From Agelas oroides (Eukaryota; Porifera; Demospongiae; Agelasida; Agelasidae), in the NCBI GenBank assembly GCA_949130485.1, contig OX422195.1, forward strand, positions 1,466,566 to 1,530,565: a stretch of DNA of 64,000 bases, given 5' to 3'. Below are positions 5,026 to 63,861 of this stretch, in pieces. A program made the translations under genes and the position numbers. How positions within the stretch are numbered: the stretch's first letter is position 1; each line of letters opens with the position of its first letter. The notes beneath the pieces are model-generated. The model was not told the origin of the DNA. It ran no database searches and saw nothing but the letters and a program-made list of their open reading frames with translations.

Positions 5026-6831
5026 ATGGGTAAGTTTTACTGTATTCCGTCAACTACGTTTTTATTTATTTATTTTTTTGCACGGGAATAAAATCTGGGT
5101 TGGCTTTGTGTGTTTGCATCCGTGCTATTGTGCAAGATTGTTGGCGATTGTGATTTAGTGTGACGACTAATACATATTTTAGCAGGCTGAGTACAAACTG
5201 TCGAAAGTTAAACTTTTGGGCTGCGATTTTATAGTAGATTACACAGCCTTAGTCACTGAATTATGATTGTCACTACTGTTATTTTATTTACTGTCTGTTG
5301 AGCAGTTTAGTTTGGATTGCTCCACCAGCCTCCACGTCATTTAGCTGGCTGAAACTGCTGGAGTGATGGAATATAGCTTTAACAACCGCGTAGAGCATTG
5401 TGTTTTTAGCTGCAGTGATGGAACTATAGTGTGTTAGATGTTTGTAACCGGTGAAAACACATCCATTGAAACAAAGAAGGTGCAATTTGTGCAACAACTC
5501 ATCTATGCACGAACATAGTAACAGAAAGTGTGCATGCTGCACACTCATTCAATTCATCCATTCATGAACCATTGTCAGTTCTAAGGTAGCCCTGTGTAAC
5601 AGGCTTTGTGCATAGAGTTTATAGAAGACACAATTTGCTCCAATCTATTATTTTACTGTAGTCAGCCTTTGATATGTTGCAACTGACCAAAGCCAGGTGA
5701 AATCAGCTAGCAAAATTTAGCATGAATATCCTGTGAAGTCACTGTGAGCCTATATCAAAAATTCGTCCAATCGGAAGGTTGCTGTATTCGGCATGCATCC
5801 AGATTGCGCAATTAATTAAACTGACAATAAATGGAGCATCAAGACACTACATCACCATTTGTGCTGCAAGAATTTTTTTCAAGAAGACATGCAAGTAAGC
5901 TTATTAGCTCCAGTGAGCTGTAGTCCCTGTTGAGACTTTGGTAAAAACATGCACAAATCAGTTCTTGCAAAACAAGGCAATTTGTTAGCCCCACTGCACT
6001 GTCTGCTATTGTTTCAAGATGGCAACACACGTTTTGTCTGGAGATGAGCCAAGGTTGAGTGGAAATGACGTATACTGTCAACAGTCTGTTACACCAACCT
6101 TGTATCTACCCCAATTTCTCCTAAGCTGCAAGACAAAACTGGTTATGAAGCTGTGATTTTGTTACAATTGGTTCATGACAACTGTGTTCCATGACCCTGG
6201 CCCGACAAGGACAGCGATTGTCTGTTGACAATGACCTATTATGCTTAAATAAGCACAATTAATTTAATCACCCCATTTTGCGACTTCATTCCCACGCCGG
6301 TAGAGGAGGAGGCTTAATGCACTGCACTCTGAGCATGTGGGGGAGTACTGATGGTGTAAGAGTTGTAAATCTAAAGCACGACAGCTTGACTAGTACACAT
6401 CACATGCCGGTTCTGATGGTTTAGCTAATGCAGTGGTGCTGCATTATAACCAAACCACGTAGAACGGGCCACTCGTAGCTACCTGTTTTGGCTGCATGTG
6501 ACAATACCAATTTGTGCAACGAACTGTATAACTAATTGTTTGTTTATGCGAACAAGCTTTATTAGCTAGTGATTTGCCAACCAATGAACCACATCACCTT
6601 GAAGAATGGCAGGCCTAGATGTATGCAAAGCCACCCACTGTTCAGGAGCAATACATTTTATTCACATTGTTGAAACTAAACTAGGAGCTGTAAACTTTTA
6701 GCCAACACAGTTAGCTTATTTTGACCTCTGTTATACAGTGATGTTAAAATAACCAAGAGAATGTAATGGTCACCAACCTGGACGCTATGAATATGTTTTG
6801 TGGCCTACTTGGGGTAGTATAGTGACACACA

Positions 6832-6911
<80 letters not shown>

Positions 6912-9900
6912 ATATTAAAGGATAAATAACTAATAATCAAGTCATTAAAATAATAAGGCAATAAATTAATGCATTAGGCAATACCTCTTACATCACTTTA
7001 TTATTTGGGGAAATACAAGAGGATAATTATTTATTATGTCTGACGGGCTTTCAAAGGGGAACATATGTACATCAATGCAAGCAAAGTTTCCCAAAGCAGA
7101 GGATGTACTCTCTTTGCTTTGGGAAACTTTCAACATTCAAATTAGCTAGAGTCTAAACTGTAGGGTACAAGTTGGGTACGTCTCTTTCTGTTTACAGGCC
7201 TTTAACAAACAGCCTTTTGTGTTCTCACACCTAATTCATAAACTGTTGCACATTAAGTGACAAAACAAGTTTAAGTAAAAATAATATTTTTTACTCTAGG
7301 ACAACATTGTTCCATTAAGATCAGGCCATGAGAACCTTCTTCTGGTCTCATTCCCAGTCTATTGTAGAGGAGCCTCGGAATGAGGCAACCCCTCAAACTA
7401 AAATGTAACTTTCACACATTTTATGTCAACATCAAGATTATTATTGTTGTTTTTTTTTTTGTAGGTGATTCGTGTTTTGGTTGTTGCAAGGTGTGCTGCT
7501 ACAGTACGCCGTATGGTACCATCTTTGCCCTCAGTGTGACCGTGGTGGGGCTGGTCGGGTTCCTCTCCTCCTCTGTCTACGGTGTTGCTCAGCTGAATAA
7601 CTCACCCATCTTACAGAACCAGTGAGTGATTAATTAATGAACCGCCTAGGTGGCTTGGGATCTGAAGCACCTCTTTATGGTGTGTGCTGAAAGAAAGTAG
7701 AGGCAGCTAATCACAAATCATTGCAATTCAACTTTTGTGAAATGTGTATACTGCATACCAAGAGTGCATTATGTTACAGTGGGAAGTTACTTATCCGAAC
7801 TTCAATTATCCGAATCTTCAGTTATCCGAACCCCCCAAATAATAGTATTCATAGAAATTTTGTTGTGCGTTAAATAAAGTAATGCATTCAAATAGTATTG
7901 TTTCACTTATTCGAACATTCCAGTTATCTGAACACCCTCCAGTCCCAATGTGTTCGGATGAGTGACTTCCTACTGTAATTCTGCAGTAAAAACAGCTTCA
8001 TCATGTGCTCTTGCACATAAGTATGTGTATAAAGAACATTTTCTGGGAAAACGTTTTTGTAAATTTTGCAGATCTGTTGCCTTTTTTGGCATTTTTTTAT
8101 CTGCCCAAGAGTACCACTGCTAATGTTTCCTTGCATACAAAATATATAGTTTCTGTAACTGTATAAATTGATAGGTGTAATGGTATGCCTTGATACATTT
8201 GTCAATTAGCATAGACTCAGTGTCTCTGTTGCTAGGCAACCAACTAGTGGGCAGAGCCTCAGTACAGTGTCTCCATTACTGGAGAACCGACTAGTGGGTG
8301 GAGCCTCATTATATAGTCTCACTGTCGCTGGGCAACCAATTAGTGGGCGGAGCCTCAAGTAACTGGGAGTGGTAGGTGTGGTAGCTAAGAGATGAAGGAA
8401 GATCTTTCAGCTCCAGGAAATGCTTTCCCTGGGAATTTAATAAGACCCAAACCTGGGACTTTTGATCCATATAGTCAAACGCTTGGCCACAAGTCACAAA
8501 CATGTTCACCACCCAAACACATTTCCAGGCATCTAGCCAACTTCATTGCAAAAACTGTACAGAAAAAACTTGGTAGATGGGTGGGTGTGTGGTTTGGGAG
8601 AGAGCCCATGTTCTGCCCACCTTGCATGCCACAGGTGCCAAACCAGCTCCACTTGAAGCTCAAGGAAAGCGGAGTAATGACAAACCACTTAGCTAATCTG
8701 AAGCACACACACTGACATTCCATCGTGGTTACTCCCTTTCTTACTGGAAATTGGAAAACTACTCACCGTACACAATTTATGTACAAATGAATTCATTGGC
8801 TGTTGGTCGTACAATGCACCCCCATTAGCCAATTCAGGTTCATAATAAGACTTGTCATGTACTTGTGTTACAAATTAAATTCTACCAACATCAAAGGTGT
8901 CGTGAAACGCAGAGTAACGAGATTATAATTGTTCTGGGATTAGGTCACTTACAATTGCCCTGTGGTTGAGTCACTGGACACTGTTTATCGGATTTTGCTG
9001 TCCTGTGGGGGACTGGCAATGCATGTACTCAAAGCAAAATACATTTAGCATCCTGGGGCAGGCTGTAGCCTCGTTGCTTTCCCACCGTCCAGTTTTTGAT
9101 TGCTTACAGTAAGCAAAAACAAAAAAGAAATGACCTGGGAGATTTTTTTCATGTGAATACTGCCAATGCCTGTATAGGTAGAACTCATTTTGAACTCGCC
9201 AATCAAATTCGTGCAATTGAAACTTGTGAAAGTTTTTTTTCCTTTTTTTCATCATTTTTCGAAGTTGGAAAGTGTTCTCATAGCATCCTGGTGTATTTTA
9301 GTGCTTTTAGCTATGAAATCAGAGCTATGAATGCTAAAAAAGCAGCTAGTTAACTCTCAAATGTAAACTCGGTACTACGTGCAATCTAAGTTATTCCTAA
9401 CCAACTGGGCAAAACAAGTGCTCTGTCCAAAATCAGACCATCCAGTTGGAGTGGTGCCACTGCTAATGTGCATGTGCAGCTAATGTGCTGAGATATGAAG
9501 ATTCATGAGACATTCTGGTTTGTTCAGACTCTGAGAGAGAAGGACTCGGGCCATCCTCTAGGGTCATATCCGCAAACACTTGAAGATCAAAGCTATGCCA
9601 ATAGGCATAGTAGGTCATGTGAGCGAGCACAACTTGTTGAGAAACTGTTCCCTTCTGGTGTCGTATCAAGTTCCTTAAAGATCAGAGCTGAGTCAAAAGC
9701 ATAATATCAAACCTACTAGGTTATGTGAGTGAGCACAATATTAGCCTCATTCCCAAGCCTCCCACATGGCCTGGGAACGAGGCTAGCACAATAGGTCATG
9801 TGACCTTCTAGAGAAGCATATAGGTAAATTAGAAGCATAATGGGCCGCTTCCTATAAAAGAAAGCAAAAGAACATGCATGGTTATAGATAATTTTCCTTT

Positions 9901-10322
9901 GCATAGCCTTGTTCTCGAATCCTTATTACCGAAAAAGGGCTCACTTGCTTCCACTTGCTGGCATTCCAGTATCCATACAGGTGGGGCAATTGCTCCATTT
10001 CTTCATTCTTCTCCGTCAACAAAACCCTAGTAGTGGGTCACAGCTGCTATTCATTAATTAATACTCTCACACACACATGTATATCGCTCTTGGACACAAC
10101 TTATCATCCATGATGCCAAATTAGTCTCATTCAGATATTCCCACATGTGCAGAGAAGGCCTGATTTCTGAAATTCCTTGTTGCATGAGGTGAAGCTGTTC
10201 TTGAATTTTCTTGAGCTCCAATCGGATTGCATTGTGGTGTCATATTTGGATGATATAAGCCATCATATTAAATTCCAGAGCCAAATTGGAGGTAGAGAAA
10301 CTTGTCTCGCAGTTTACTTTTG

Positions 10323-10359
<37 letters not shown>

Positions 10360-13300
10360 TGGGTGTGCATGTGTGACTTGATAGCTGTTGCCCCTGTCCT
10401 TGTCAACTGAGAAATTAGCTCCTAAACTTTGTCTAGCACTTATAAACCATGCCACGCAGCAGTCTGTGTGCACCAAGTTGTCAGAAACCTGTCTAGCACT
10501 TATAAACCATGCCACGCAGCAGTCTGTGTGCACTTATAAACCATGCCACGCAGCAGTCTGTGTGCACTTATAAACCATGCCACGCAGCAGTCTGTGTGCA
10601 CTTATAAACCATGCCACGCAGCAGTCTGTGTGCACTTATAAACCATGCCACGCAGCAGTCTGTGTGCACTTATAAACCATGCCACGCAGCAGTCTCACCA
10701 TGCCACGCAGCAGTCTGTGTGCACTTATAAACCATGCCACGCAGCAGTCTGTGTGCACTTATAAACCATGCCATGCAGCAGTCTGTGTGCACTTATAAAC
10801 CATGCCACGCAGCAGTCTGTGTGCACTTATAAACCATGCCACGCAGCAGTCTGTGTGCACCAAGTTGTCAGAAACCTCAAGTCCCAGATGCATTCTTGAC
10901 AAATACGGTTTTACCTCATGTGGCAAGAAATGTCACTCAAAACACCTGACCAATTTTCGGCTTTTTGGGAGGGTCTGGGAACAAGCCAAATTGTAGATGG
11001 CACATTGTTGGTAAACATATATAATGTTATCAGCGTTTTTTTCTGGCACGTACCTCAATGTGTGATATTTACTGTGGTCCTAGCGTCGTTCCCAGTCCCC
11101 CACCCAGCTTTGATAACTTGCAGTACTGCAAGCAAAGCTGGCAGGGGGCCGGGAAACAAGGCTACTGTATAGTACTGCAAGCAAAGCTGGCATGGGGCTG
11201 GGAAACAAGGCTACGTTGTACTGCAGGTGAGGGAAAGGTCTAACACCTGGAAACGAGGTTACCGTGATATTGTGTGGTCACAAGACGTGTTGTAACCATG
11301 GTATTGTTTAAATGACCTTCATTGAATAGTTAATTGCACCCACTATGCATTTTGAAACACTGTTATTTTGGTATTTTTGTACAATAAAGCCTTGTTTGAA
11401 AGGACAAGGGCTGAAAAGGCTAATAGAATAAACACTTCTTTCAGTGGCTAGGCCACCCTTGCTCTTGTGGCAACTCCAGAAAGGATTTTTTAACCTCAAG
11501 TTTAATTTTTCTATTGTCAGCCTACATACCTGTGCATGCATGTTGGGAAGTAGGTTTGGAATATGGTGTGTGCATTGTGTAGTCTGTGAAGCACATGCAT
11601 ACCTTTACACTAGCCTTGTTTGAGGCATGTTTGGAGAGTGCATTATGATACAATGGGAAGTCACTTATCCGAACTTCAATTATCCGAATCTTCAGTTAAT
11701 AATATTCATGCGGCAAAGTGCAAAGCTTCGATTCTTTTCCACTGTTCAAACATAGATGGTAGGAACTGAGCTATGTACGTACAGTGCAGTCGTACACCCT
11801 AAAGTATTAATTATTTTTGCACCATGAGTCGTGACGGTGCTCTGAGGATTTGAAGGTACACAGTAGCCTTGTTCCCAGGCCATTCCTGTCTCATTCACAG
11901 CCTCCCTCACTCCGAAATGGCAATTGTAAACGTGGGGAGAGTTTGGGTAATTTTCTCACATGAGCAAAGTCAAGGGTCGAAAGGGGTTAAAAAGACCTTA
12001 CTTGCACATGGGTGTAGCTACCTCGGGAGCTAAAAAGAGCAACAGTACTGGGCAAATTACTACACGTTAGTGGGGGGGGGCAAATATTATACACACAAAG
12101 TGTTAGACATATAGTTAGTTGAACAACGTGCAAAATGTTGTCTTGCTGCTCTGAAAATTCTAGCCCTTTTCCAATTATGTCCATGTTCACATGAAAAGGA
12201 TACCAGGCTCTCCCCGCCTGGCGATGTTTGCATTCCGGAGTCGGGGAGCCTGGGAACGAGTCAATGTGTAATGCTACTACTCTGATCAGTTACCAAACTC
12301 AGCACTGCTAATCTCATAATAGAAGCGTGTGAAGTAATATGATACTTATTTGGATGAGTAGCTGACGGCACAGACATTTGAGCAGCTAATTCGACCATAG
12401 CTGGTCATCAAGTACACTCCTACACACCATGCCGGCTACTGATAGTACATGCTATGGATACTCTATTTCAGACTAGTCAGTGAATATTATAGACAGTGAA
12501 TAAAATTATGACACTCCCATTTCACACTACACAATGCTGCTCGTGCACACTTCATGATGTTCTCCATTTCCAGTCTTCCTGCACCTAGCCTCATTCCCAG
12601 GCACATGAGAGCCTGGGAATGTGGCTATCATATACACCATGCCACTCCCACTCTCGTTCCTGTTGCTTATAATTATCCCCCCTCCCTCCCCCCCTCCCCC
12701 TCCCCCTCGCTCTTTCACACACACACACAGTACTGTTGTGTTTGCCCCAATCATCGGTGGAGTAGCAGGGTCCACAGTGATCCCACTGGTCCTGGCAACC
12801 ATCCTGGCATATTGCATCACTGGGTACATCAGGGATGAGCTCTACCACCCGTTTGTGAAGGGATGTGTTGGAGCATCTTGCAACATCTGGGTAGGGTCAC
12901 AGCCATCAGTATCGATCATATGTGTCAATCCCATAGGTGTCGGAAGCAAATTGAGAGTGGGGGGGCTAAGTTTACAGTAAGTGCACGCAGCGCGCGTGAA
13001 AAATTTGTGTTCACATCCCCTGCCACACCCCCTGCCACACCCCTCAAAAGCGTGTATACAGTGCGCTAGCGCGAGGTCCATAAGTACTACGTACAACCAG
13101 TCATACGCGCAAAAACGCAAGTTCAGCAACCGCAAACCAAGTATCCTTCGTCCAAAAATTGCAAGACAGTACAATAATCGATCGATCGATCGACAACATC
13201 TAGCTAGTTGTGAAATACATGACCACGCCTATTTTGAGGGCTAAAAAAGTGGGGGGGCCATGGCCCCCCGTGTGCGACGCCTATGAATCCAATCAGTACC

Positions 13301-14630
13301 ATGTGTCAATGCAATCAGTATTATATATGTCAATCCAATCAGTATCGTGTCAATCAGTATCATATGTGTCAATCCAATCAGTATCGTGTCAATCAGTATC
13401 ATATGTGTCATTGCAATCAGTATCGTGTCAATCAGTATCATGTGTCATTGCAATCAGTATCATGTGTCATTGCAATCAGTATCATGTGTCATTGCAATCA
13501 GTATCGTGTCAATCAGTATCATGTGTCAATCCAATCAGTATCATGTCAATCAGTATCATATGTGTCATTGCAATCAGTATCGTGTCAATCAGTATCATAT
13601 GTGTCATTGCAATCAGTATCATATATGTCAATAGTGTCATGCGACATCTGGGCAAGGTATAGCCGAGCCTGTTCCCAGGGTCAGGCCCCTCCTCGGCCTT
13701 TAATCACCAGTAATTGCATACTGCAAGCCACAGAAATCTGGAGCCCTGGGCCATTGTGAGCTTCACTCTGTCCCAGCAAACAGGATCAAAACTGTTGGTT
13801 AGAGGAGAGTTAATCAAGCTCCCAATGAAGGGTGAAACTGCTCTCCTACCCATTTGGCATCTTCTTTGTCTGCACAGTAACAATATCGTGTCACAAACAT
13901 CGTGTGTCAGTGTCACGTGTCAGTATCATGTGTTTCAGTGTCATGTGTGTCAGTATCACGTGTGTCAGTATCACGTGTATCAGTGTCACGTGTCAGTATC
14001 ATGTGTGTCAGTATCACGTGTGTCAGTATCACGTGTATCAGTGTCACGTGTCAGTATCATGTGTGTCAGTATCATGTGTGTCAGTATCATGTGTCAGTGT
14101 CACATGTCAGTATCATGTGTCAGTATCACATGTCAGTATCACATGTGTCAGTATCATGTGTGTCAGTATCATGTGTGTCAGTGTCACGTGTGTCACAGCA
14201 ATTGTATCCATAGCATATGTATCACAGCAATCGTTATCATATGTGTCGTGTCACAGTAGACAGTATCATATATGTCACAGTAGAAAGTATATACTGTCCC
14301 TTGCAATCAGTGACATATGTATCACGGCAATCAGGACTGTGTGTGCACACTTGAGTTTTGCACCCAGTAAATTGTATCCAAATTTTCAATCTGGGTTGCC
14401 CATGGTTCACACACCATCCCCTTACACTCGCATACACCTCCCGCTCTTGCAGATCATCACCCTGACGTTTGTCTACTTTGTGATCTGGCTTGGACTGAGT
14501 GTGCTGCTGAGTCTTGTGATGGCTGTGTATCTTCAGCTATCATGGGCATGCCCCCAAATAAGAGCCAACACGCTCCCTCGTGAGGGCTCTCTGCCCTGCT
14601 TTCACTTTTATAGTCAAAGTGAAAGTGAAA

Positions 14631-14665
<35 letters not shown>

Positions 14666-16220
14666 AGTGTGTGTGTGTGTGTGTGTGTGTGTATGTAGAG
14701 ATGGAGAGAGGCAAGGAAGTGAGGGAAGGAAGAGAGGGAAAGGGAGGGGAGGGGAGGGGGGGAGGGAGGGAGGGGGAGAGAAAGAAAGAAAGAAAAAAGA
14801 AGGGAGAGAGAAGGGAGGGAGGAGGGAGGGAGAGAGGTAGGGAGGAGAGAGGGGGGAGGGAGGGAGTAGGGAGGGGGGAGGGAGGGGGGAGGGGGAGGGA
14901 GGGGGGAGGGGGAGGGAGGGGGGAGGGAGGGAGGGGGGAGGGAGGGAGGGGGGAGGGAGGGGGGAGGGAGGGAGGAAGTGTGGTGTAATTATATTACTTT
15001 CAATCTCCCCTGCATAACCATGTAGATTTGTTGAAGGTGTGTGTTGATGGTATTGGAGAACTCTGTACAATGGTGAGTAAATCTTACTGAAACAGGTCAA
15101 TGCTAACCTCATTCCTAGGGAGACATGGCAACATTTAAGCCACTTCCAAGTAGACTCTCCTTCTTCAACTACCTCCGATATCTTGTGGGCCAGATGGTCC
15201 CTGCAAGTAATAGTCTTCAATTCCCTCTCCTCTACACACTTTATGTCACTCTCATCCCTCCCACACAATGTCACTCTCATTCCTCCCACACAATGTCACT
15301 CTCATTCCTCCCACACAATGTCACTCTCATTCCTCCAACACCATGTCACTCTCATTCCTCCCGCACAATGTCACTCTCATTCCTCCCACACCATGTCACT
15401 CTCATTCCTCCCGCACCATGTCACTCTCATCCCTCCCACACAATGTCACTCTCATTCCTCCCACACAATGTCACTCTCATTCCTCCCACACCATGTCACT
15501 CTCATTCCTCCCACACAATGTCACTCTCATTCCTCCCACACAATGTCACTCTCATTCCTCCCACACAATGTCACTCTCATTCTGCCAACACCATGTTATT
15601 CTTATTCCTCCCACACAATGTCACTCTCATCCCTCCCACACCATGTCACTCTCATTCCTCCAACACCATGTCACTCTCATTCCTTCTTCACATTGCAGGG
15701 CCCAAAAATTGGGTTGGCGTTTGCAATATCACTGGGGTTCTCAATCATTGTTGTCCTGGGACTGGTAAGTGAATGTAGCAGCTTGATCATCTCTAGCTGG
15801 ACCAATAGACAGCCCCCTATCACCCCAGTGTAGCCTAAAACCTCGATATGAGAACGCCCATCAACTCCAGAAGACATTGGAAGAACACTTTCTTCAACGA
15901 AACCTCACCCAGCTTTTCATTCCTATTACAAGCAATCCAGTCTTGGTACCAGACCCTCCCAAGGAAGAAACTTCACCTAGCTTCCTTCCTTCCATGTGAA
16001 GTATTGAGACTAGTTGAAGGCCTGGGAGCGAGCATTGAGTGTGATACATGTTTAGGTATGCATTGTGAAGCTACCAGAAAGATAGGGGCATCATATTTAC
16101 TGGAGCTAGTGGTGATCCTTTGTTTACCTGCAGGTTGTGATGCTGATTGTGCAGGCAGCCAATTTTGTTGGAGTAAGAGAAAGCAACAGGAGGTCGTATA
16201 AGCCCGGTGGCGACTATTAG
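5026..16220 (+). CDS. Myelin proteolipid/M6 (PLP/GPM6) family four-pass membrane protein, copy A
   Basis: Exons: 5026-5029, 7465-7621, 12731-12890, 14453-14630, 15026-15072, 15699-15764, 16134-16220 (TAG). They give 232 residues with phases 1,2,0,1,0,0. The start MGDSCFGCCKVCCYSTPYG matches the Cys-rich, normally acylated N-terminus of PLP/M6 proteins (MGxxxCCxxC..xPY). Four hydrophobic segments follow, one each in exons 2, 3 and 4 and one spanning exons 6-7. An N-H-T sequon (about residue 53) is in the first outer loop. The large outer loop holds four cysteines, ending VCVDGIGELC, like the two disulfides of PLP. The tail is short and basic. The product is inferred to sit in the plasma membrane; its function here is unknown. 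The exon 4 donor at 14631 is the least certain boundary because it runs into a GT repeat. A tetraspanin was considered but the CCG motif is absent. Confidence 0.8.
5030..7464 (+). other. Intron 1 of PLP/M6-like gene A; no gene seen
   Basis: This intron separates the 4-nt first coding exon from exon 2. I see no coding stretch. It holds a long (CA)n microsatellite at 6831-6908 and one small CCTCGTTCCCAGG-type foldback at about 7338-7386. Acceptor 7461-7464 follows a T-run. Confidence 0.6.
6831..6908. repeat. (CA)n microsatellite
   Basis: An almost pure run of CA dinucleotides, about 39 units. Confidence 0.97.
7773..7979. mobile_element. MITE-like element with TTACAGT terminal inverted repeats
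   Basis: The left end TTACAGTGGGAAGTTACTT is the inverse of the right end, which reads GAGTGACTTCCTACTGTAA. The inside carries repeated TTATCCGAA motifs. A partial second copy, with the same upstream flank GAGTGCATTATG, lies at 11636-11698. There is no coding capacity. Confidence 0.75.
8205..8358. repeat. Three degenerate tandem units of about 60 bp
   Basis: Each unit ends in a form of ACTAGTGGGCGGAGCCTCA and begins with a form of GTTGCTAGGCAACCAA. The first unit has a perfect GTTGCTAGGCAACC palindrome at 8228-8241. The remainder of intron 2 of gene A (7622-12730) shows no coding signal. Confidence 0.7.
9738..9796. mobile_element. Small CCTCGTTCCCAGG-family foldback with target duplication
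   Basis: A short inverted repeat (TAGCCTCATTCCCAAGCC ... GGCCTGGGAACGAGGCTA) is flanked on both sides by GCACAATA. It is a small member of the family described at 2669-2789. Confidence 0.65.
10424..10890. repeat. 34-bp minisatellite
   Basis: About twelve copies of a 34-bp unit containing CTTATAAACCATGCCACGCA, with a few truncated copies, lie in intron 2 of PLP/M6-like gene A. A (GT)n tract at 10325-10370 precedes it. Confidence 0.92.
12933..13284. mobile_element. MITE-like element with ATAGGYGTCG inverted ends, inserted in a minisatellite
   Basis: The left end ATAGGTGTCGGA and the right end (inverse ATAGGCGTCGCA) bound about 350 bp without an open gene. On both sides lies ATCAGTATC/TGTGTCAATCC repeat sequence, so the element appears to have split an older tandem array in intron 3 of gene A. 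Confidence 0.7.
13285..13640. repeat. ATCAGTATC minisatellite
   Basis: Many copies of a 13-22-bp pattern based on CAATCAGTATCATGTGTCA. The same pattern exists upstream at 12905-12932, before the inserted element. Confidence 0.9.
13876..14300. repeat. GTGTCAGTATCACGT minisatellite
   Basis: A second, related tandem array of roughly 15-bp units (TGTCAGTATCACGTG and variants) fills the rest of intron 3 of gene A up to about 14300. It yields long but meaningless open frames on both strands. Confidence 0.9.
14631..14985. repeat. (GT)n followed by a 280-bp polypurine (GGGAGGG) tract
   Basis: The tract begins at the proposed donor of exon 4 of gene A (GTGAGT then (GT)n) and turns into GGGAGGG-rich purine sequence from about 14700. 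Closely spaced G-runs could form G-quadruplex or triplex structures in the transcribed gene. No gene is present. Confidence 0.9.
15243..15690. repeat. 25-bp minisatellite before an acceptor
   Basis: About eighteen copies of a 25-bp unit (CACAATGTCACTCTCATTCC) run up to the exon 6 acceptor of PLP/M6-like gene A. The C/T-rich units extend the polypyrimidine tract of that acceptor. Confidence 0.95.
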
Positions 16221-16982
16221 TCAGCAGCGAGGGATTGATGCACATTCACTTATTTAAAAATCAGTAGTCACATGCAAAGCGTTTCACTTGTATGTGTAAT
16301 AAGCCACCAACTATAATAATGTGTGTTTGCTTAGTACAAAACAGTTGCATTGTAAATTGTGTGTATACAATGTCATTTGTTGGATTCTGATATTATACAG
16401 CCCTTGACCCTTGATTAAAATCTATGTTGACCTATACTGTATTCAAGCCTAATAAACTGCACTGAAACGAGCTGCCCTGCTTTTTGCCTGTATATAGACA
16501 GATTTCATTCAGTGATGCACGGTGCGGGCGGGAGGAGCTGAGTGCAGGGCTAGCTAGGGACGTTGTGCATATATTATATGCGCGCGCATATATTCACGCG
16601 CCGCGCCGCGATGTTTCATGACGTCACTAGCTGCTCTATTATCTATGCTTGAACGAACCACTGCACTGTTTAACACATGCACAGTAAAGCTGGCCTATGG
16701 GGGAGTTTCCTAAGAGTTCGGGGAGGTTCAACACATCCGAATCTGTTTGAACCAATGTTCAACACAGTGAACCTGACTGCAATGTACAAGTACAAATTGT
16801 ACCTACGTAAGTGCGTACATTGTATATACTACAATGTACGCACTTACGTAGGTACGTATGAACGTGCGCGCGTGTGGTGTAACGCCAACGGGCAGACTAT
16901 GCCACACCCAATCATTCTAATTTCCAAAGCTACGCACTAGTTGATCGAGACAAGAGCTATACTGTGTGATCGAGACCTCAAA
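16221..16982. promoter_or_regulatory. Intergenic region between the two PLP/M6-like genes, probable promoter of copy B
   Basis: It holds an AATAAA at 16451-16456, 231 bp after the stop of copy A, a plausible polyadenylation signal. Next comes a CpG-rich stretch with ATATGCGCGCGCATAT (16577-16592) and a perfect TGACGTCA cAMP-response-type palindrome (16619-16626). A long perfect hairpin follows at 16799-16855. Promoter function is inferred from position only. Confidence 0.5.
16799..16855. repeat. Perfect 26-bp-arm palindromic hairpin
   Basis: Two perfectly complementary 26-base arms (outer GTACCTACGTAAG, inner CATTGTA) flank a 5-base TATAC loop. It lies about 130 bp upstream of the start codon of PLP/M6-like copy B. 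Confidence 0.95.
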
Positions 16983-19900
16983 ATGGGCTGTAAGTTTGCC
17001 TTAAAGTACGCTAGGTTTTCGATGCGCATATTTATAGCAATCACGAAATGACTTGCAAGTCGGCTTTGCAAAAAAAAAAAAAGCTTGTCATTCAGCTCAG
17101 TGCAAAATAGAATACGTGTCCTCACGGACAGATCTAGCATTACGTGTTTAATCAGTTTTCTCCATGAAATGAACCTTGTTAAAACTTTTACTTGGCTAGC
17201 TAGACTATTCATGATCCACTGTGCAGTTTTCAGGGTTACACCAGCTCACACGAGTTTTTGTTGCCATGCAAATTGTATTACTAATAAGTGACTAAAATGT
17301 AACTATAGCAAGAGCTCAGCTTGTGTTACTGCCTGGACATGCAGACAGAAATGCAGTCAATGGAGGCCAAGGCTGATTAAAAAAGTGTGTACTGATGTGG
17401 GTACTTTACATGTATGCTAGTAGCATCCAGAATCCAGCTTCTTGTAGCAGGGAAGTGGCCAAGTGATTATGTGACTGTGCACCATCGAATCCCACCTCAT
17501 ATTGCCCAGAATTGATGTTCAAAATACATAGCTGCACCTCACATCGTATGTTTACATATACCTCCAAGCCCTCAACCAAAGGCTGGTCTCCAGTTCCAAA
17601 GGCATGCAGGAGATGAAGCAACTAAGACATAATTACTGCTTTTGCATGGTCAAGAAATCTAGATGTCTGAATGCAGTACATTGGTCCTTAGCCAACCACG
17701 ATCCAGTGCAAATTAAGCTCAGCTTTCAAAGCAGCAATGTAAACACTATTCCTTCTTAGGGAGCTGGTTTACTTAAGACGTTTGACTCCTCTGCAGGTGA
17801 AGATTGCTGCAAGAGCTGTTGCTACAGCACTCCATACCTGACACTCAGTGCTGTGGTGTGCATTTTACTGGGGCTAACTGGCTTCACCATTGCAGCTGTG
17901 TATGGAACTGTGGAGATGAGTACTGTACCTCACTTGCAGAATGGGTAGGTGTAGCCAGGCACATGGTTTTGCTAAGAGTGCAGTTATCTCTTGCTATGGC
18001 AACAAACCCACATGACACACAATGCATTATATTGCTGATTGTTGTTTTAGAACTAAGATAACTTCCCCTGAAACCAGTGTGCAGTGGTAATCACCCATAC
18101 TATACACATGGCTATTGTATATATACTTACTCAAATATCATTTTAAAAAGCAGTTGCACTGTTGCCATGGTTATTCTGGCTGCCTCCAACATAAACATCT
18201 GGTGTGCATTATTAGGCTTTCATTAGCTGAGCTTCAAGTTTGGTTCAAAGGCCCTTGCAAGGAAGAAATGGCTAATTGTGAGGGTATTAGAGACTTATGC
18301 AATGAAGCAAAGTATTGTATCAAAGGTCCCTCCTTCCTCCTTCCCTCGCATAGCACTGCCGTAGTCGCACCAGTGATTGGTGCCGCAGTGGTGCTGACGT
18401 TCATTCCCCTGGTTTTTGCCACCATCTTGGCCTACTGTATCACTGGCTACATCAGAGATGTTCTCTTCCATTCTGTTGTGAAGTCATGCATTGGATCATC
18501 TTGCAACATATGGGTACGTCAGTATGCTTCCATAGTAGTACTGGGACTTAAGTTATTAATTTAACCCTTCCTGTACTGGTTCGTGATAACTGATGTCTGA
18601 TCAACTAAGATTTAGCTGGAATTGTGTACCACAGGCAGCAGCTGGGACTTAATTAACCCCTAACCTCCCTGTATAACAAACTGACTACACATGCCTTGGT
18701 GTCTCTCTTATGTGGTCTTAGTATGCATACAAAGCAGCCATGCAGTTCATGACCATAATAATCTTGTGTTGTACATGATCCTTTTCCAGCAGTTTCCATT
18801 ATGCTCTCCCTCCCACTTGTGACCTACATATATGAGCAATAATTAGTTGCAGAGTGACTAAATGTTACAGTAGATTTCCATAAAAGCATATCCTGAGGGA
18901 GTGGTGTTGAGTCTATATTTACTTAATAAACATTGGAAGAGCATGTGTTGTTAATGTACATGATTTAAACAATGGTGTACCAAAGTCACCACATGGTAGT
19001 GATCACTTTTAGAAGGCATCTATATTAAAGTGCATTAGTGAAGTCTGATGGACTTATTTGGCAATTATTTGTATGTCTAGCAGAGGCACACCCACACCAT
19101 ATACTCAAGAAACCTGTGAATCAATTGCAACCAATGAAAAGAAAGAAGAGTCTGGGAACGGTAGTTTTGTCTGTGATCCTATAGTTTCAGGATTAAACAT
19201 TGACACCCTCCTTCTTGAACCTATTTCATTAGTGGGTAATGAAGCACAAAGTGTGGTAGGTGGTGCTTATCATACTGCAACTGTACAGTGACTGTGAAAA
19301 ACACTTTTTTTTTTGCAAAACCTTTGAGTGCAAAAGATCATTCGCATTCATCAGAGTGTAGCAGTGTTTACATGATCAAAGGCCTGTTCTCTTTTGTCCA
19401 CATACAATCTTGTTTATTTCTGGTAATCAGTAACAAATGCCTTGATTAGCTGATGAACTCAATCTTTGTTGAAGCCATTGGTGCATACTATATAATCCAG
19501 CAAGACTAATAATTCTATAACTTCGAACAGAAGACCATGATTGCAGTCAGAATCGTCTGGTTTTGGTTGAAGCTCCCACACTTTTCCTTGGTGTGGTTGT
19601 TTGGGTATTCAAGATGCTACAATTAGGGGTAGCCTCTTTTAATGTCCATTTTGTAGTTGCTTGGGTGTTACAAGCTATAGGTATCTTAGGGAAGAGTGTG
19701 TGCTTTATCTGACAAGATGAAGCTACAGGTATATATACAAGGCTTACTCAACAACTATGTTACAAACAGGTAATAGCTCACTGATGGAGTGTGGAGTTAA
19801 CTTTGGTGTAAACCTCCGAGTTTGTACACTGTGTCTATAAGATGTGGGCACATAATGGCAACCCCCTGTGCAGTTTATTGTTATCATCCATTGAAACTGA

Positions 19901-22668
19901 AGTACAAAAAGTATAGTAAACGTTGACTGGTGATAAGTAATAATGAGTTCACAACTGAAAAGTTGGAGCTTAACTGTTTTGTCCTCCCTCCTTCTTGCTT
20001 ATGTACTTCCTTGCTTATTATTTTCATATAGTTCAACCCCCCCTCCAACACACCCACAAACACACACACACACACACAGGTGATAGTGCTAACGTTCCTC
20101 TACTTCCTCCTCTGGCTGCTGATTACTGTAGCGATGGGTGGTATCATGGTGTACTATGTGCAGGCAGGACTCAAGTGCGGGGAGCTGGAAGCCATGGGGA
20201 GAATGAACGACTCCTCTGCATGCTTCTCTTACATTGATACAAGTATGTGTAGCATTAGGTGTTTATACCACCTCCTCTGATGCCAATGTCACCTGTCCTA
20301 GAAGTGTGTGTAGCTAGCCTCGCTCCCAGGTCTTCTGCTTCCGTGTCTACTGTGTAGTGTATTTACATTACTTCACAACCACTGGTGCAATCGGCTGTCC
20401 ACTGGTGCAATTGGCTGTCCACTGGTGCAATCGGCTGTCCACTGGTGCAATCGGCTGTCCACTGGTGCAATCGGCTGTCCACTGGTGCAATCGGCTGTCC
20501 ACTGGTGCAATCGGCTGTCCACTGGTGCAATTGGCTGTCCACTAGTGCAATTGGCTGTAATAGTCACCTGATCCTGGCCCTAGCCCATGTCTGAGTCACA
20601 TGACCGACTGACCAAGCTTTGAAGCAACTGATACTGTGACAATGTGCTACATACTGTTATTGTGATATGACATTTCTCTTTCTTCTTGCAGGTTTTCAGT
20701 ACTTCGCTATCTGTGGTGGGAACGGTTTACAAGAACTGTGTACAGAGGTATGTGTGATAAAGATAAAGTCCCATTTGTCATCCAGTTAAATAAATCACGT
20801 GACAGCAAAGAAAATAATGTGATATACTTGGTTCTATTAAGAAGATATTATCTTAATCGTGAGATTTGTCATCATGTCACTATTACTGGTTTAATTCACC
20901 ACTGTCCAATTTTGGACCACTTAGAATGAAGGGTTACTGTTAAAACAAAACTGGATGTAAAAAAGGTGAGGGTGGCAGTGTGCAGTAGCTAAAGTGATCT
21001 CAACAGGCTTGTTTTGAAAACAGTAAGTAAAACTGCCATCGATCAAAGATGGGATTGCCTGGGAATGTCAATTTGGCAGGCATCCTTAAGACAGACAGGT
21101 AGCTTGAAGCAATCATCTTTGAGTTGCAACCACTGTGATGTTGCAGGCGTGGTCGAGTGGGAGTCAACCAGTTCCCACACATAAGATGCAAGTGTAGGAG
21201 GTAGTCTGGAAAAACAGGATAGGTGGGGTGCCAGCTTGTGTGTTTACATCTGGAAGCAGCCAAGTATTTTCATAATCTGTACCCAGGCTGATGTTCAGAG
21301 GAAATAGCAAGGTACTGGGTATTCCATCAAACAAGAGCGCATAAGAATGGGCGGCTAGAGGAAGAGCGTGTAACTACGTAAAATTCCAAACCGGTCAGAA
21401 TTTACCGCCAGTACTAAAAATAGTAACACGTATGCGCAGCTGCTTGTAGACATGTTGCTAAGCACGTGCCGGGTGTTCTATTTTTAGTACGGTTCAATTT
21501 TGACCGGACTACGGGCTTCTATTGGAGTTACACACTCTTCCTCTAGCCGCCCGTTCTTATGTGCTCTTGCATCAAATCATAGCTGAGATCTCTACAACAT
21601 AGTATGAGTGTGTGGTATGATTACTAAAGTGGGTGTACATGCCTCATTCCCAGTCCCAATGTACATAACCTCAGAATGTGACTTTACCACACACTTCTTG
21701 TACTTTGACCTCACAGGGTTTGAAGGTCGGGCTGTCCTTCTCCATATCGCTGATCTTTACACTGATTGTCATCATTGGACTTGTGAGTGCATAGCACACG
21801 CAGTGAAACCTTAGCCTTGTTCCCAGTTCTTATACCATAGCTGTGGTGGAGGACTGGGAACGAGGCATAGCACACGCAGTGAAACCTTAGCCTTGTTCCC
21901 AGTTCTTATACCATAGCTGTGGTGGAGGACTGGGAACGAGGCATAGCACACGCAGTGAAACCTTAGCCTTGTTCCCAGTTCTTATACCATAGCTGTGGTG
22001 GAGGACTGGGAACGAGGCATAGCACATGCAGTGAAACCTTAGCCTTGTTCCCAGTTCTTATACCATAGCTGTGGTGGAGGACTGGGAACGAGGTTAGTGA
22101 AATCCACTTCATTCTCTGCAAATACTGTATAGGGAGAAATTTTCAAAGGGTGAATTTTCCCATTTGTGTTTTTAAAAGCTTGAATACATATTGATGCTGA
22201 ATATCTCCAGTTTAGAGTGGTAAAACAATGACGAACATAAGAGTGTACATGGATGTACAACACTTGAGCCACTAAAGACTTTACGTTGTCAGCAGTAAGA
22301 CACCGTTAGTTCAGCACTAATTCCCAGGGTCTTCCCCAGCTTTAGCTAAACAATGTAAGAGCTGTGGAGGAGCCTGGGAACATGGCCATATGTAGCTACC
22401 CCACACTCACAAAATGCAAATTTGATATGCATGTCCTGGACAACAATTACCACAAGTGCAAACTGTTGAATATTGTGACCCTGCAATGGTAATTCGATTA
22501 CTACATACATGTAGAGAGGGTACTAAGTGAAGGTGGCATATGTACATCCTACAGGTTGCGTTGATGGTGGTGCAGTCAGCCAACTTTGTCAGTGCCCTGG
22601 ACAACATGGAGTATCGGCAATCCAACTACCCTCGCAACGAGGCCTACTTTATGAAGCGTGTACGCTGA
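16983..22668 (+). CDS. Myelin proteolipid/M6 (PLP/GPM6) family four-pass membrane protein, copy B
   Basis: Exons: 16983-16989, 17797-17944, 18354-18513, 20080-20242, 20692-20747, 21717-21782, 22555-22668 (TGA). They give 237 residues with the same phases (1,2,0,1,0,0) as copy A; exons 3 and 6 have identical length (160 and 66 nt). The N-terminus MGCEDCCKSCCYSTPY is very close to the MGCxECCxxC start of M6 proteins. Four membrane segments are visible. The first outer loop has an N-G-T sequon (about residue 51). The large loop has four cysteines in the PLP pattern (LKCGEL, SACFSY, AICGG, ELCTE). The product is inferred to be a plasma-membrane proteolipid. The two copies are a clear tandem duplication. 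The 7-nt first exon is supported by phase and by completing the MGC start. Confidence 0.83.
20385..20560. repeat. 20-bp tandem repeat
   Basis: Nine copies of ACTGGTGCAATCGGCTGTCC lie in intron 4 of copy B. The surrounding introns of copy B, including 18514-20079, otherwise show no genes. Confidence 0.95.
21332..21570. mobile_element. MITE-like element, AAGAGCGCATAAGAACGGGC family, copy 1
   Basis: About 45-bp terminal inverted repeats start CAAGAGCGCATAAGAATGGG and end with the complementary sequence. Inner subterminal motifs TTTTTAGTAC and GACCGG are also inverted. Two related copies are at 34024-34296 and 39897-40157. No transposase is present, so it is presumably non-autonomous. Confidence 0.85.
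21790..22095. repeat. Four tandem copies of a 70-bp unit containing a foldback
   Basis: The array starts immediately after the exon 6 donor of PLP/M6-like copy B. Each unit contains CCTTGTTCCCAGTTCTTA and the inverse end GGACTGGGAACGAGG, so each is a hairpin of the CCTCGTTCCCAGG type amplified in tandem. Confidence 0.9.
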
Positions 22669-23230: not shown

Positions 23231-24590
23231 TCATGTTCTGTGTTTACTGCTAGCACCAGAAAATAAAGTTTTACTGACAGATGCAGTACTCGTGGTGGTC
23301 ACAGCAGGGGGTGAGTGTGTTACTGTCTTCTTGTACAGTCGGATGTGGATGGCTGAGTTGTGCCGAGACTGGGTATGGTAGTCGGTCTCCTGAAATTGAG
23401 AACAACACAGAACTCTGGCTGCATGATAAAACACTGTGAGCATATAGCCCTGGGAAAGCGAATATGGACTGTAAATGAACCTAGAACTGAGGCTATGGTA
23501 TCCGTTACTGTGGCCATGCTCTATATGACGTAATCTTACATCGTCCAAAGGCTCCAAGTCGTCCACCAGTTCAACAGTGGATGTTGTAGCAGAAACCTAT
23601 GTGTAGAAGACAAATGCAATGCATCAACTAAAAGGTTTTATTTGGGATTGCTTGTGTAGGGAGGGAAGTCGGGAAGAGAACCAGCTGGCTGCATAATGGC
23701 CAGGCATCTAAGAAAATCTTGGGGCATACTCCCTCAGAACACTTTTTGAAATGTAGGTTACCGTCTTCTGAGTGCATATTTCAGTGTGACTTTTGAGACA
23801 CAATACAACTGCAGCAAAAATCTCACTACATTATTATGGTTAAAAAAAATTAAAAAGAGGGGGGGGATGAAAAAAAACAAACATTGGCAACGAACCCATG
23901 CAGAGCTTTCACTAGATGGCGTTGTGTTGTACCTACGTACCTCGAGTGTGTGTGAGCTTGTTTCTTTCAGCTGCAGTGCCAGGTTGATAGCTCTGTGAAT
24001 AGCTGCCCCCAGGCCATGAACGAAGAGTTCACTATACCTGAAAAAGAGAGAAGGAAAGAACACGAAAACTCCTTCACTCTAATAGACCATAGACAGACAC
24101 CTTTGCAAGTGGCTTGCCACAGTGTGCATACACTGCACATGCATAGTTACCACAGCTTCAAAAATGCAAGTCAGAAGAAACAAAGATCAATGAAATGAAA
24201 AACTACCGGTACATCTGGAGTGGCTGAGGGGTCCGACATAAACAGAGTATGTGGGATTTCATCCATGTCAGATCTCTTATATAGGAGTGACCTTATGTAT
24301 GTACCCTTGGTCCAAGAGCTTGTGACATCTTGCCAGCTGTGCTGCAAACTCAGATTTCCTGTTAACATAGATATCATTAGGTCGTTGGGACAATCTCCTG
24401 GGAGGCCTCTTCCTACGAACATCTGTCAAGGGAGTGTGGGAAGGAGAACAGGGTCTCAAGAAGTTTGGCACAGAGTTTTAGACTTAGAAGGAAACTTACA
24501 GGAGGATTTCTTTTCCTCTGCTTTTCTGGGGCTCTTCTGTCGTGATGTCGAGCTCCTTTCGTCCTGAGACGGAGCTGCAACTTCAGCCAT
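23231..24590 (-). CDS. POP7: POP7/Rpp20, RNase P and RNase MRP protein subunit
   Basis: Exons in transcript order: 24590-24500, 24422-24305, 24037-23941, 23596-23540, 23368-23231. They give 166 residues in continuous phase. Rpp20/Pop7 is an Alba-fold protein that pairs with Rpp25/Pop6 and binds RNase P and MRP RNA for tRNA and rRNA maturation in the nucleus. The family's hallmark blocks are all present in order: RPNDIYVNRK, AQLARCHKLLDQG, HGLGAAIHRAINLALQL, STVELVDDLEP and NSAIHIRLYK. The C-terminus extends about 25 residues beyond the last conserved block, rich in Ser and Thr. The second intron uses GTACAT as donor, chosen because it keeps the phase and alignment. The start is the first ATG, preceding a charged, low-complexity leader. 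Confidence 0.93.

Positions 24591-24733: not shown

Positions 24734-63861
<39,128 letters not shown>

What the first reader, a model, noticed from the sequence alone, without database searches (positions are those of the whole stretch)
5026..22668. Tandem pair of PLP/M6-type proteolipid genes in an invertebrate with vertebrate-like gene structure
Seen: two adjacent genes with four membrane segments, an MGxxxCCxxCC..PY start and four cysteines in the large loop. Both have seven coding exons with phases 1,2,0,1,0,0. From memory, human PLP1 also has seven exons with the same phase series (a first coding exon of ATG plus one base, DM20-form exon 3 of 157 nt, exon 6 of 66 nt); here exon 3 is 160 nt and exon 6 is 66 nt in both copies. 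If the species is a sponge or other early-branching animal, the family and its exon plan predate myelin and nervous systems by a wide margin.
Basis: partly seen in the sequence, partly recalled or inferred. Interest (0 to 1): 0.82.

Follow-up and report, generated by a model that had tools for sequence, protein, structure and literature searches.

The report
Tandem invertebrate myelin-proteolipid (PLP/M6) gene pair
Two neighbouring genes in this animal belong to the same membrane-protein family as the main protein of human brain myelin, and most of their exon boundaries fall where those of the human gene do, which suggests a gene layout older than myelin; the animal's phylum could not be determined here.

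Summary
Two head-to-tail seven-exon gene models on the + strand (5026-16220, 16983-22668) encode 232 and 237 aa proteins about 49-50% identical, with open frames, GT..AG at 12 of 12 introns and dN/dS about 0.3 (dS near saturation). Pfam's only credible family for both is Myelin_PLP: gene 1 41 bits (cut-off 23.8); gene 2 23.6, just under it, tied in by gene 1. Both have four hydrophobic regions, an N-terminal cysteine cluster on the GPM6A columns and four cysteines in the large loop (two of the four column-aligned with vertebrates in order; the other two ambiguous). Intron phases 1,2,0,1,0,0 equal those of human PLP1, which I checked in print. Introns 2, 3 and 6 fall on identical alignment columns; three exact matches arose in 1 and 2 of 200,000 random placements. 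Correction: gene 2 exon 1 is 7 nt, not 4. The 'early-branching animal' part stays untested: the host-genome tool did not complete. Low family scores (recalled human GPM6A: 302 bits) show deep divergence but name no phylum. Best reading: M6-type tetraspan proteolipids, probably acting at cell contacts or protrusions like fly M6. New member of a known family; moderate interest, more if the host is a sponge.

The parts
5026..5029 (+). gene 1 exon 1 (ATGG)
   Evidence: donor GTAAGT
7465..7621 (+). gene 1 exon 2: cytoplasmic cysteine cluster, TM1, first loop
12731..12890 (+). gene 1 exon 3: TM2 and cytoplasmic loop
   Evidence: paralogue match to 18331-18516, 63%
14453..14630 (+). gene 1 exon 4: most of TM3 and first half of large loop (Cys 1 and 2)
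15026..15072 (+). gene 1 exon 5: second half of large loop (Cys 3 and 4)
15699..15764 (+). gene 1 exon 6: TM4, 66 nt
   Evidence: 22 codons, as PLP1 exon 6
16134..16220 (+). gene 1 exon 7: end of TM4, C-terminal tail, stop
   Evidence: AATAAA at 16451
16983..16989 (+). gene 2 exon 1 (ATGGGCT)
   Evidence: donor GTAAGT
17797..17944 (+). gene 2 exon 2: cysteine cluster, TM1, first loop
18354..18513 (+). gene 2 exon 3: TM2 and cytoplasmic loop
20080..20242 (+). gene 2 exon 4: most of TM3 and first half of large loop
20692..20747 (+). gene 2 exon 5: second half of large loop
21717..21782 (+). gene 2 exon 6: TM4, 66 nt
22555..22668 (+). gene 2 exon 7: end of TM4, tail, stop
   Evidence: AATAAA at 23262

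Best explanation
Two functional, tandemly duplicated genes of the PLP/M6 (Myelin_PLP, lipophilin) family in an invertebrate animal. Each encodes a four-pass plasma-membrane protein with both ends in the cytoplasm, a cluster of N-terminal cysteines likely to be S-palmitoylated, and a large second loop with four cysteines that probably form two disulfides. They keep a six-intron plan that vertebrate PLP1 also keeps. Likely mode of action, inferred from fly M6 and mouse M6a: the palmitoylated protein gathers with itself and with partner membrane proteins in cholesterol-rich patches at cell vertices or protrusions, and so helps build cell contacts or filopodia. Shown here: gene models (without RNA), family membership, shared intron plan, constraint on both copies. 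Inferred: topology, lipid modification, disulfides, function, and that the duplication is lineage-specific.
For: Gene 1 matches PF01275 over profile positions 2-230 of 231 at 41 bits (E 2.4e-10), gene 2 over 2-224 at 23.6 bits (E 5.2e-5). The profile of the pair against recalled human GPM6A + DM20 gives hhalign probability 95.2, E 2.6e-8, score 59.3, against at most 23.3 in 100 block-shuffled controls. Intron phases equal those of PLP1 at 6 of 6. Introns 2, 3 and 6 are on identical columns in both genes (3 of 6 exact); within one column with the same phase it is 4 of 6 (gene 1) and 5 of 6 (gene 2); within three columns 5 of 6 in both. Random placement gave 3 exact at 5e-6 (gene 1) and 1e-5 (gene 2) of 200,000 trials each, that is 1 and 2 trials. 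Intron 4 lies between the second and third loop cysteines, counted in order, in both genes and in PLP1. pN 0.35 against pS 0.66, dN/dS about 0.31. N-terminal cysteines of both genes share alignment columns 14, 17, 18 and 21 with recalled GPM6A; the corresponding cysteines of mouse GPM6a are palmitoylated, and so is the three-cysteine cluster of fly M6 (PMC11698045, passages). Identity 48.7% between the genes against 18-29% to the recalled human proteins.
Against: Gene 2 falls 0.2 bit short of Pfam's cut-off when taken alone. Identity to recalled PLP1 is only 18%. Intron 4 is not in an alignable position (columns 204 and 202 against 187), and intron 1 matches almost trivially because it follows the start codon. 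The last two loop cysteines do not line up in order: the third loop cysteine of both window proteins sits on the column of the fourth vertebrate one (209), the window's fourth (column 218) has no vertebrate partner, and the vertebrate third (199) has none here, so the disulfide pattern is matched by number and only half by position. dS of 1.55 is near saturation. No transcript data. The function is carried over from very distant relatives.
Confidence: 0.88

Rival explanations
1. The genes are tetraspanins, claudins or another four-pass family that resembles PLP by convergence.
For: Same topology, and PLP proteins have been likened to tetraspanins (PMC7396582, passages). The loop cysteines match vertebrate PLP/M6 only in part by position.
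Against: With E up to 10 the Pfam scan lists only Myelin_PLP for gene 1, and for gene 2 only Myelin_PLP plus a chance MotA_ExbB match at E 3.6 (HMMER's filters drop most weak matches). Ancestral tetraspanin introns are all phase 0, though some derived ones are not (PMC2650405, passages), whereas here they are 1,2,0,1,0,0. Column-exact introns shared with PLP1.
Confidence: 0.04
2. One gene with two alternative sets of exons, or one working gene and one decayed copy, rather than two working genes.
For: The genes are only 762 bp apart and no RNA data exist.
Against: Each has its own start exon, stop and polyadenylation-like signal; no stop or frameshift in 14 exons; dN/dS about 0.31 between the copies.
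Confidence: 0.07
3. The host is an ordinary bilaterian invertebrate whose M6 genes have simply diverged fast, so nothing is implied about pre-bilaterian origin.
For: The phylum was not determined. M6 is known in arthropods, with a gene organisation said to resemble mouse M6a (PMC3095610, passage).
Against: Very low Pfam scores (41 and 23.6 bits, against 302.5 for recalled GPM6A). A print source gives 40-60% similarity of fly M6 to mouse M6a in the TM domains, EC2, IC and C terminus (PMC3438117, passage); here identity to recalled GPM6A is 24-29% (identity and similarity are different measures). Hints only.
Confidence: 0.45

Closest known systems
Vertebrate GPM6A / M6a
   Same: Family profile, four membrane segments, cysteine cluster on shared columns followed by PY, four loop cysteines, AN[WF] in TM4
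   Different: 24-29% identical; the first extracellular loop is shorter here; GPM6A has longer N- and C-terminal tails; the third and fourth loop cysteines do not line up in order
Vertebrate PLP1/DM20
   Same: Six introns with phases 1,2,0,1,0,0; exon 6 of 66 nt (F233-L254); DM20-form exon 3 of 157 nt against 160 here
   Different: 18% identical; exons 2, 4 and 5 differ in length; the PLP-specific 35-residue insert was not searched for here
Drosophila M6
   Same: Invertebrate member; palmitoylated juxtamembrane cysteine cluster; gene organisation said to resemble mouse M6a
   Different: Single gene of 4-5 exons; here two tandem genes with seven coding exons.
Tetraspanins
   Same: Four-pass topology with cysteine-bearing second loop
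   Different: No Pfam match; ancestral introns all phase 0

Membership tests
PLP/M6 (Myelin_PLP, PF01275) | Profile match above the curated cut-off | tested here: met
   Gene 1 41 bits against 23.8: met. Gene 2 23.6 against 23.8: just missed alone, but 50% identical to gene 1
PLP/M6 (Myelin_PLP, PF01275) | Four membrane segments over the full profile length | tested here: met
   Hydropathy regions; profile 2-230 and 2-224 of 231
PLP/M6 (Myelin_PLP, PF01275) | N-terminal juxtamembrane cysteine cluster | tested here: met
   C5/8/9/12/13 and C3/6/7/10/11; columns 14, 17, 18, 21 shared with recalled GPM6A; palmitoylation itself not testable
PLP/M6 (Myelin_PLP, PF01275) | Four cysteines in the second extracellular loop (C162/174/192/202 in M6a, PMC3438117) | tested here: inconclusive
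   Four in each protein (met by number); the first two share columns 163 and 180 with GPM6A and DM20, the other two do not line up in order
PLP/M6 (Myelin_PLP, PF01275) | PLP1 intron plan, phases 1,2,0,1,0,0 | tested here: met
   PLP1 coordinates in print; mapping; intron 4 not alignable
PLP/M6 (Myelin_PLP, PF01275) | Role in myelin or in filopodia and tricellular junctions | not testable with these tools
   No expression or localisation data
Tetraspanin | Tetraspanin profile match and ancestral phase 0 introns | tested here: not met
Non-bilaterian origin of the host | Host genome placed in sponges or another early branch | tested here: inconclusive
   The genome search unanswered 11 of 11 times; scans 23, 24, 25, 39, 40 empty

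The most novel reading that the evidence does not exclude
The host is a sponge or another animal lineage outside Bilateria, so the PLP/M6 family and all six PLP1 introns were already in place in the last common ancestor of animals, before neurons and glia. The pair then represents a working, non-neural state of the myelin proteolipid family, most likely at epithelial cell contacts or protrusions.
Probability: 0.45. Interest if true: 0.65.

Novelty: new member of a known kind. Interest (0 to 1): 0.45.

Why it matters
PLP1 is the main protein of CNS myelin and a disease gene. An invertebrate pair with the PLP1 intron plan argues that the plan is ancestral rather than vertebrate-made, and offers a way to ask what the family did before myelin. 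If the host is a sponge, the question of the ancestral, non-neural function becomes directly testable.

Tried and rejected
Host identification: the genome search 'own' with PF01275 did not complete. Scans for contaminating relatives found none: the PLP pair in genome contigs (46 stretches matched a pattern, none confirmed) and viral contigs (206, none); the neighbouring TRIM-NHL pair in genome contigs (40, none) and viral contigs (99, none); a transposon-like repeat in viral contigs (0 matches).

Solved relatives: no PDB sequence match at E up to 10 for either protein. Structure prediction was not attempted: the tool takes proteins that the window DNA gives letter for letter, and these are spliced.

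Literature: the searches that bear on PLP/M6 outside Bilateria are 20 of 177 papers listed; 20 of 252; 25 of 1,764; 12 of 68; 10 of 16; 12 of 563. None of the titles and abstract openings listed reports such genes in sponges or cnidarians, but the lists are capped. Searches looked for PLP1 splice coordinates and for fly M6. Passages of two papers named by these lists (PMC11193209, 12 of 16 places shown; PMC13025143) mention proteolipid protein only for oligodendrocytes or in references. PMC8672417 holds none of the terms PLP1, proteolipid, DM20, GPM6. Stecca et al. 2000 is not held; Mobius et al. 2008 and Schweitzer et al. 2006 were seen only in reference lists and not looked up. Absence from print is therefore not shown. 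A research paper states that the family runs from arthropods to mammals (PMC3438117, passage). A first look for PLP1 splice coordinates in PMC3125326 found none of the terms. Considered and rejected: tetraspanin, claudin, pseudogene pair, alternative exons of one gene.

Full report
I rebuilt both from the DNA. Gene 1 codes for 232 aa, gene 2 for 237 aa. 12 of 12 introns begin GT and end AG; 11 of 12 donors read GTNNGT and the other GTAGGG. Phases are 1,2,0,1,0,0 in both. Exon 3 is 160 nt and exon 6 is 66 nt in both. One correction: the first exon of gene 2 is ATGGGCT, 7 nt, because the donor GTAAGT follows it.

The two proteins are 49-50% identical. Synonymous difference (pS 0.66) exceeds nonsynonymous (pN 0.35), dN/dS about 0.31 with dS near saturation, so both copies appear to be under constraint. 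The genes are 762 bp apart, head to tail, and each has a polyadenylation-like signal downstream. A tblastn of both proteins against the window found no third copy: all matches with E below 0.1 lie at exons of the two genes. The rest of the genome could not be searched.

Family. With E up to 10, Pfam gives Myelin_PLP for gene 1 (41 bits, cut-off 23.8, profile 2-230 of 231) and Myelin_PLP for gene 2 (23.6 bits, 0.2 under the cut-off), plus a chance MotA_ExbB match at E 3.6 for gene 2. A profile-profile comparison of the pair with recalled GPM6A and DM20 gives probability 95.2 and score 59.3; 100 controls with columns shuffled in blocks of 20 reach at most 23.3.

Cysteines. Four N-terminal cysteines of both genes share columns with recalled GPM6A (14, 17, 18, 21). 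Each protein has four cysteines in the large loop, as the family does. The first two share columns with GPM6A and DM20 (163, 180). The third window cysteine sits on the fourth vertebrate column (209), and the fourth window cysteine (218) and the third vertebrate one (199) have no partner. The match is thus full by number and half by position, on an alignment of four sequences with gaps in this loop.

Intron plan. I checked the positions in print: c.4+, c.192-, c.453+ and c.454-, c.622+ (PMC10014006, passages), c.696+1 (PMC12080873, passage), c.762+3 with deletion of F233-L254 (PMC12663344, passage). They give 1,2,0,1,0,0 and a 22-codon exon 6. The DM20 form is 35 residues shorter (241 against 276 aa, PMC9313024, passage), so exon 3 goes from 262 to 157 nt. 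On an alignment made without intron information, introns 2, 3 and 6 of both genes sit on exactly the PLP1 columns with the same phase; intron 5 is one column off; intron 1 lies at the start codon in all; intron 4 lies in the variable loop, with the right phase, between the second and third loop cysteines by count, but cannot be aligned. Counted: exact 3 of 6 for each gene; within one column 4 of 6 (gene 1) and 5 of 6 (gene 2). In 200,000 random placements per gene, 3 exact matches occurred at 5e-6 and 1e-5, that is once and twice.

Rival families. The nine ancestral tetraspanin introns are all phase 0, with some derived ones in phases 1 or 2, and a sponge tetraspanin gene has all six of the classical positions (PMC2650405, passages). 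This argues against a tetraspanin here, and it also shows that introns kept from sponges to mammals are not unheard of.

Host. The neighbours are animal-type genes: three tested + strand segments match DNA-PKcs models, two minus-strand reading frames are TRIM proteins with RING, B-box, filamin and NHL domains, and one is a sulfotransferase. I could not place the host. The tool for the host's own genome gave no answer in 11 of 11 tries, and scans of prokaryote genomes and viral contigs for contaminating relatives were empty. The low family scores fit an early-branching animal but also a fast-evolving bilaterian.

Mechanism. Fly M6 is palmitoylated on a juxtamembrane cluster of three cysteines, binds itself and Anakonda, and this promotes the start of tricellular junction assembly; the corresponding cysteines are palmitoylated in mouse GPM6a (PMC11698045, passages). 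Fly M6-A, -B and -C induce filopodia in mammalian cells, and loop cysteines are described as essential for M6a function (PMC3438117, passages). The two window proteins keep the cluster and four loop cysteines, so the most likely role is that of a lipid-anchored organiser of membrane patches at cell contacts or protrusions. This step is inference.

Novelty. A fly gene said to resemble mouse M6a in organisation is already in print (PMC3095610, passage), so a plan older than myelin is known. What would be new is its presence outside Bilateria, with six introns and a tandem pair. My searches of the held library (all with capped lists) listed no paper reporting that, but the key subscription papers were not read.

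Noticed in passing
41445-43697 (-) and 45672-47918 (-): Two TRIM proteins (RING, B-box, filamin, NHL), each in a single open reading frame, 76% identical, on the strand opposite the DNA-PKcs-like segments that lie on both sides of them.
   Followed up: partly
27008-27277, 35772-35897 and 60486-60716 (+): Three segments matching DNA-PKcs N-terminal (two) and CC3 (one) Pfam models, spread over about 33.7 kb; other exons were not mapped.
   Followed up: partly
52228-53559 (-): Open reading frame with a sulfotransferase domain.
   Followed up: no
51776-51848 (+): A single tRNA gene by Rfam at gathering threshold.
   Followed up: no
10438-10928, 13286-14210, 15143-15767, 20339-20578, 21713-22168: Minisatellite arrays in the introns of both PLP-like genes (two of the listed ranges run into exon 6 at their weak edge), with commonest unit spacings of about 34, 13-39, 25, 20 and 76 bp (20 of 27 families shown).
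   Followed up: no
about 7780-7975 and 11650-11700: Similar repeated stretches rich in TTATCCGAA, perhaps ends of a DNA transposon (read by eye; the label is recalled; one 26-base piece searched in viral contigs, no match).
   Followed up: partly
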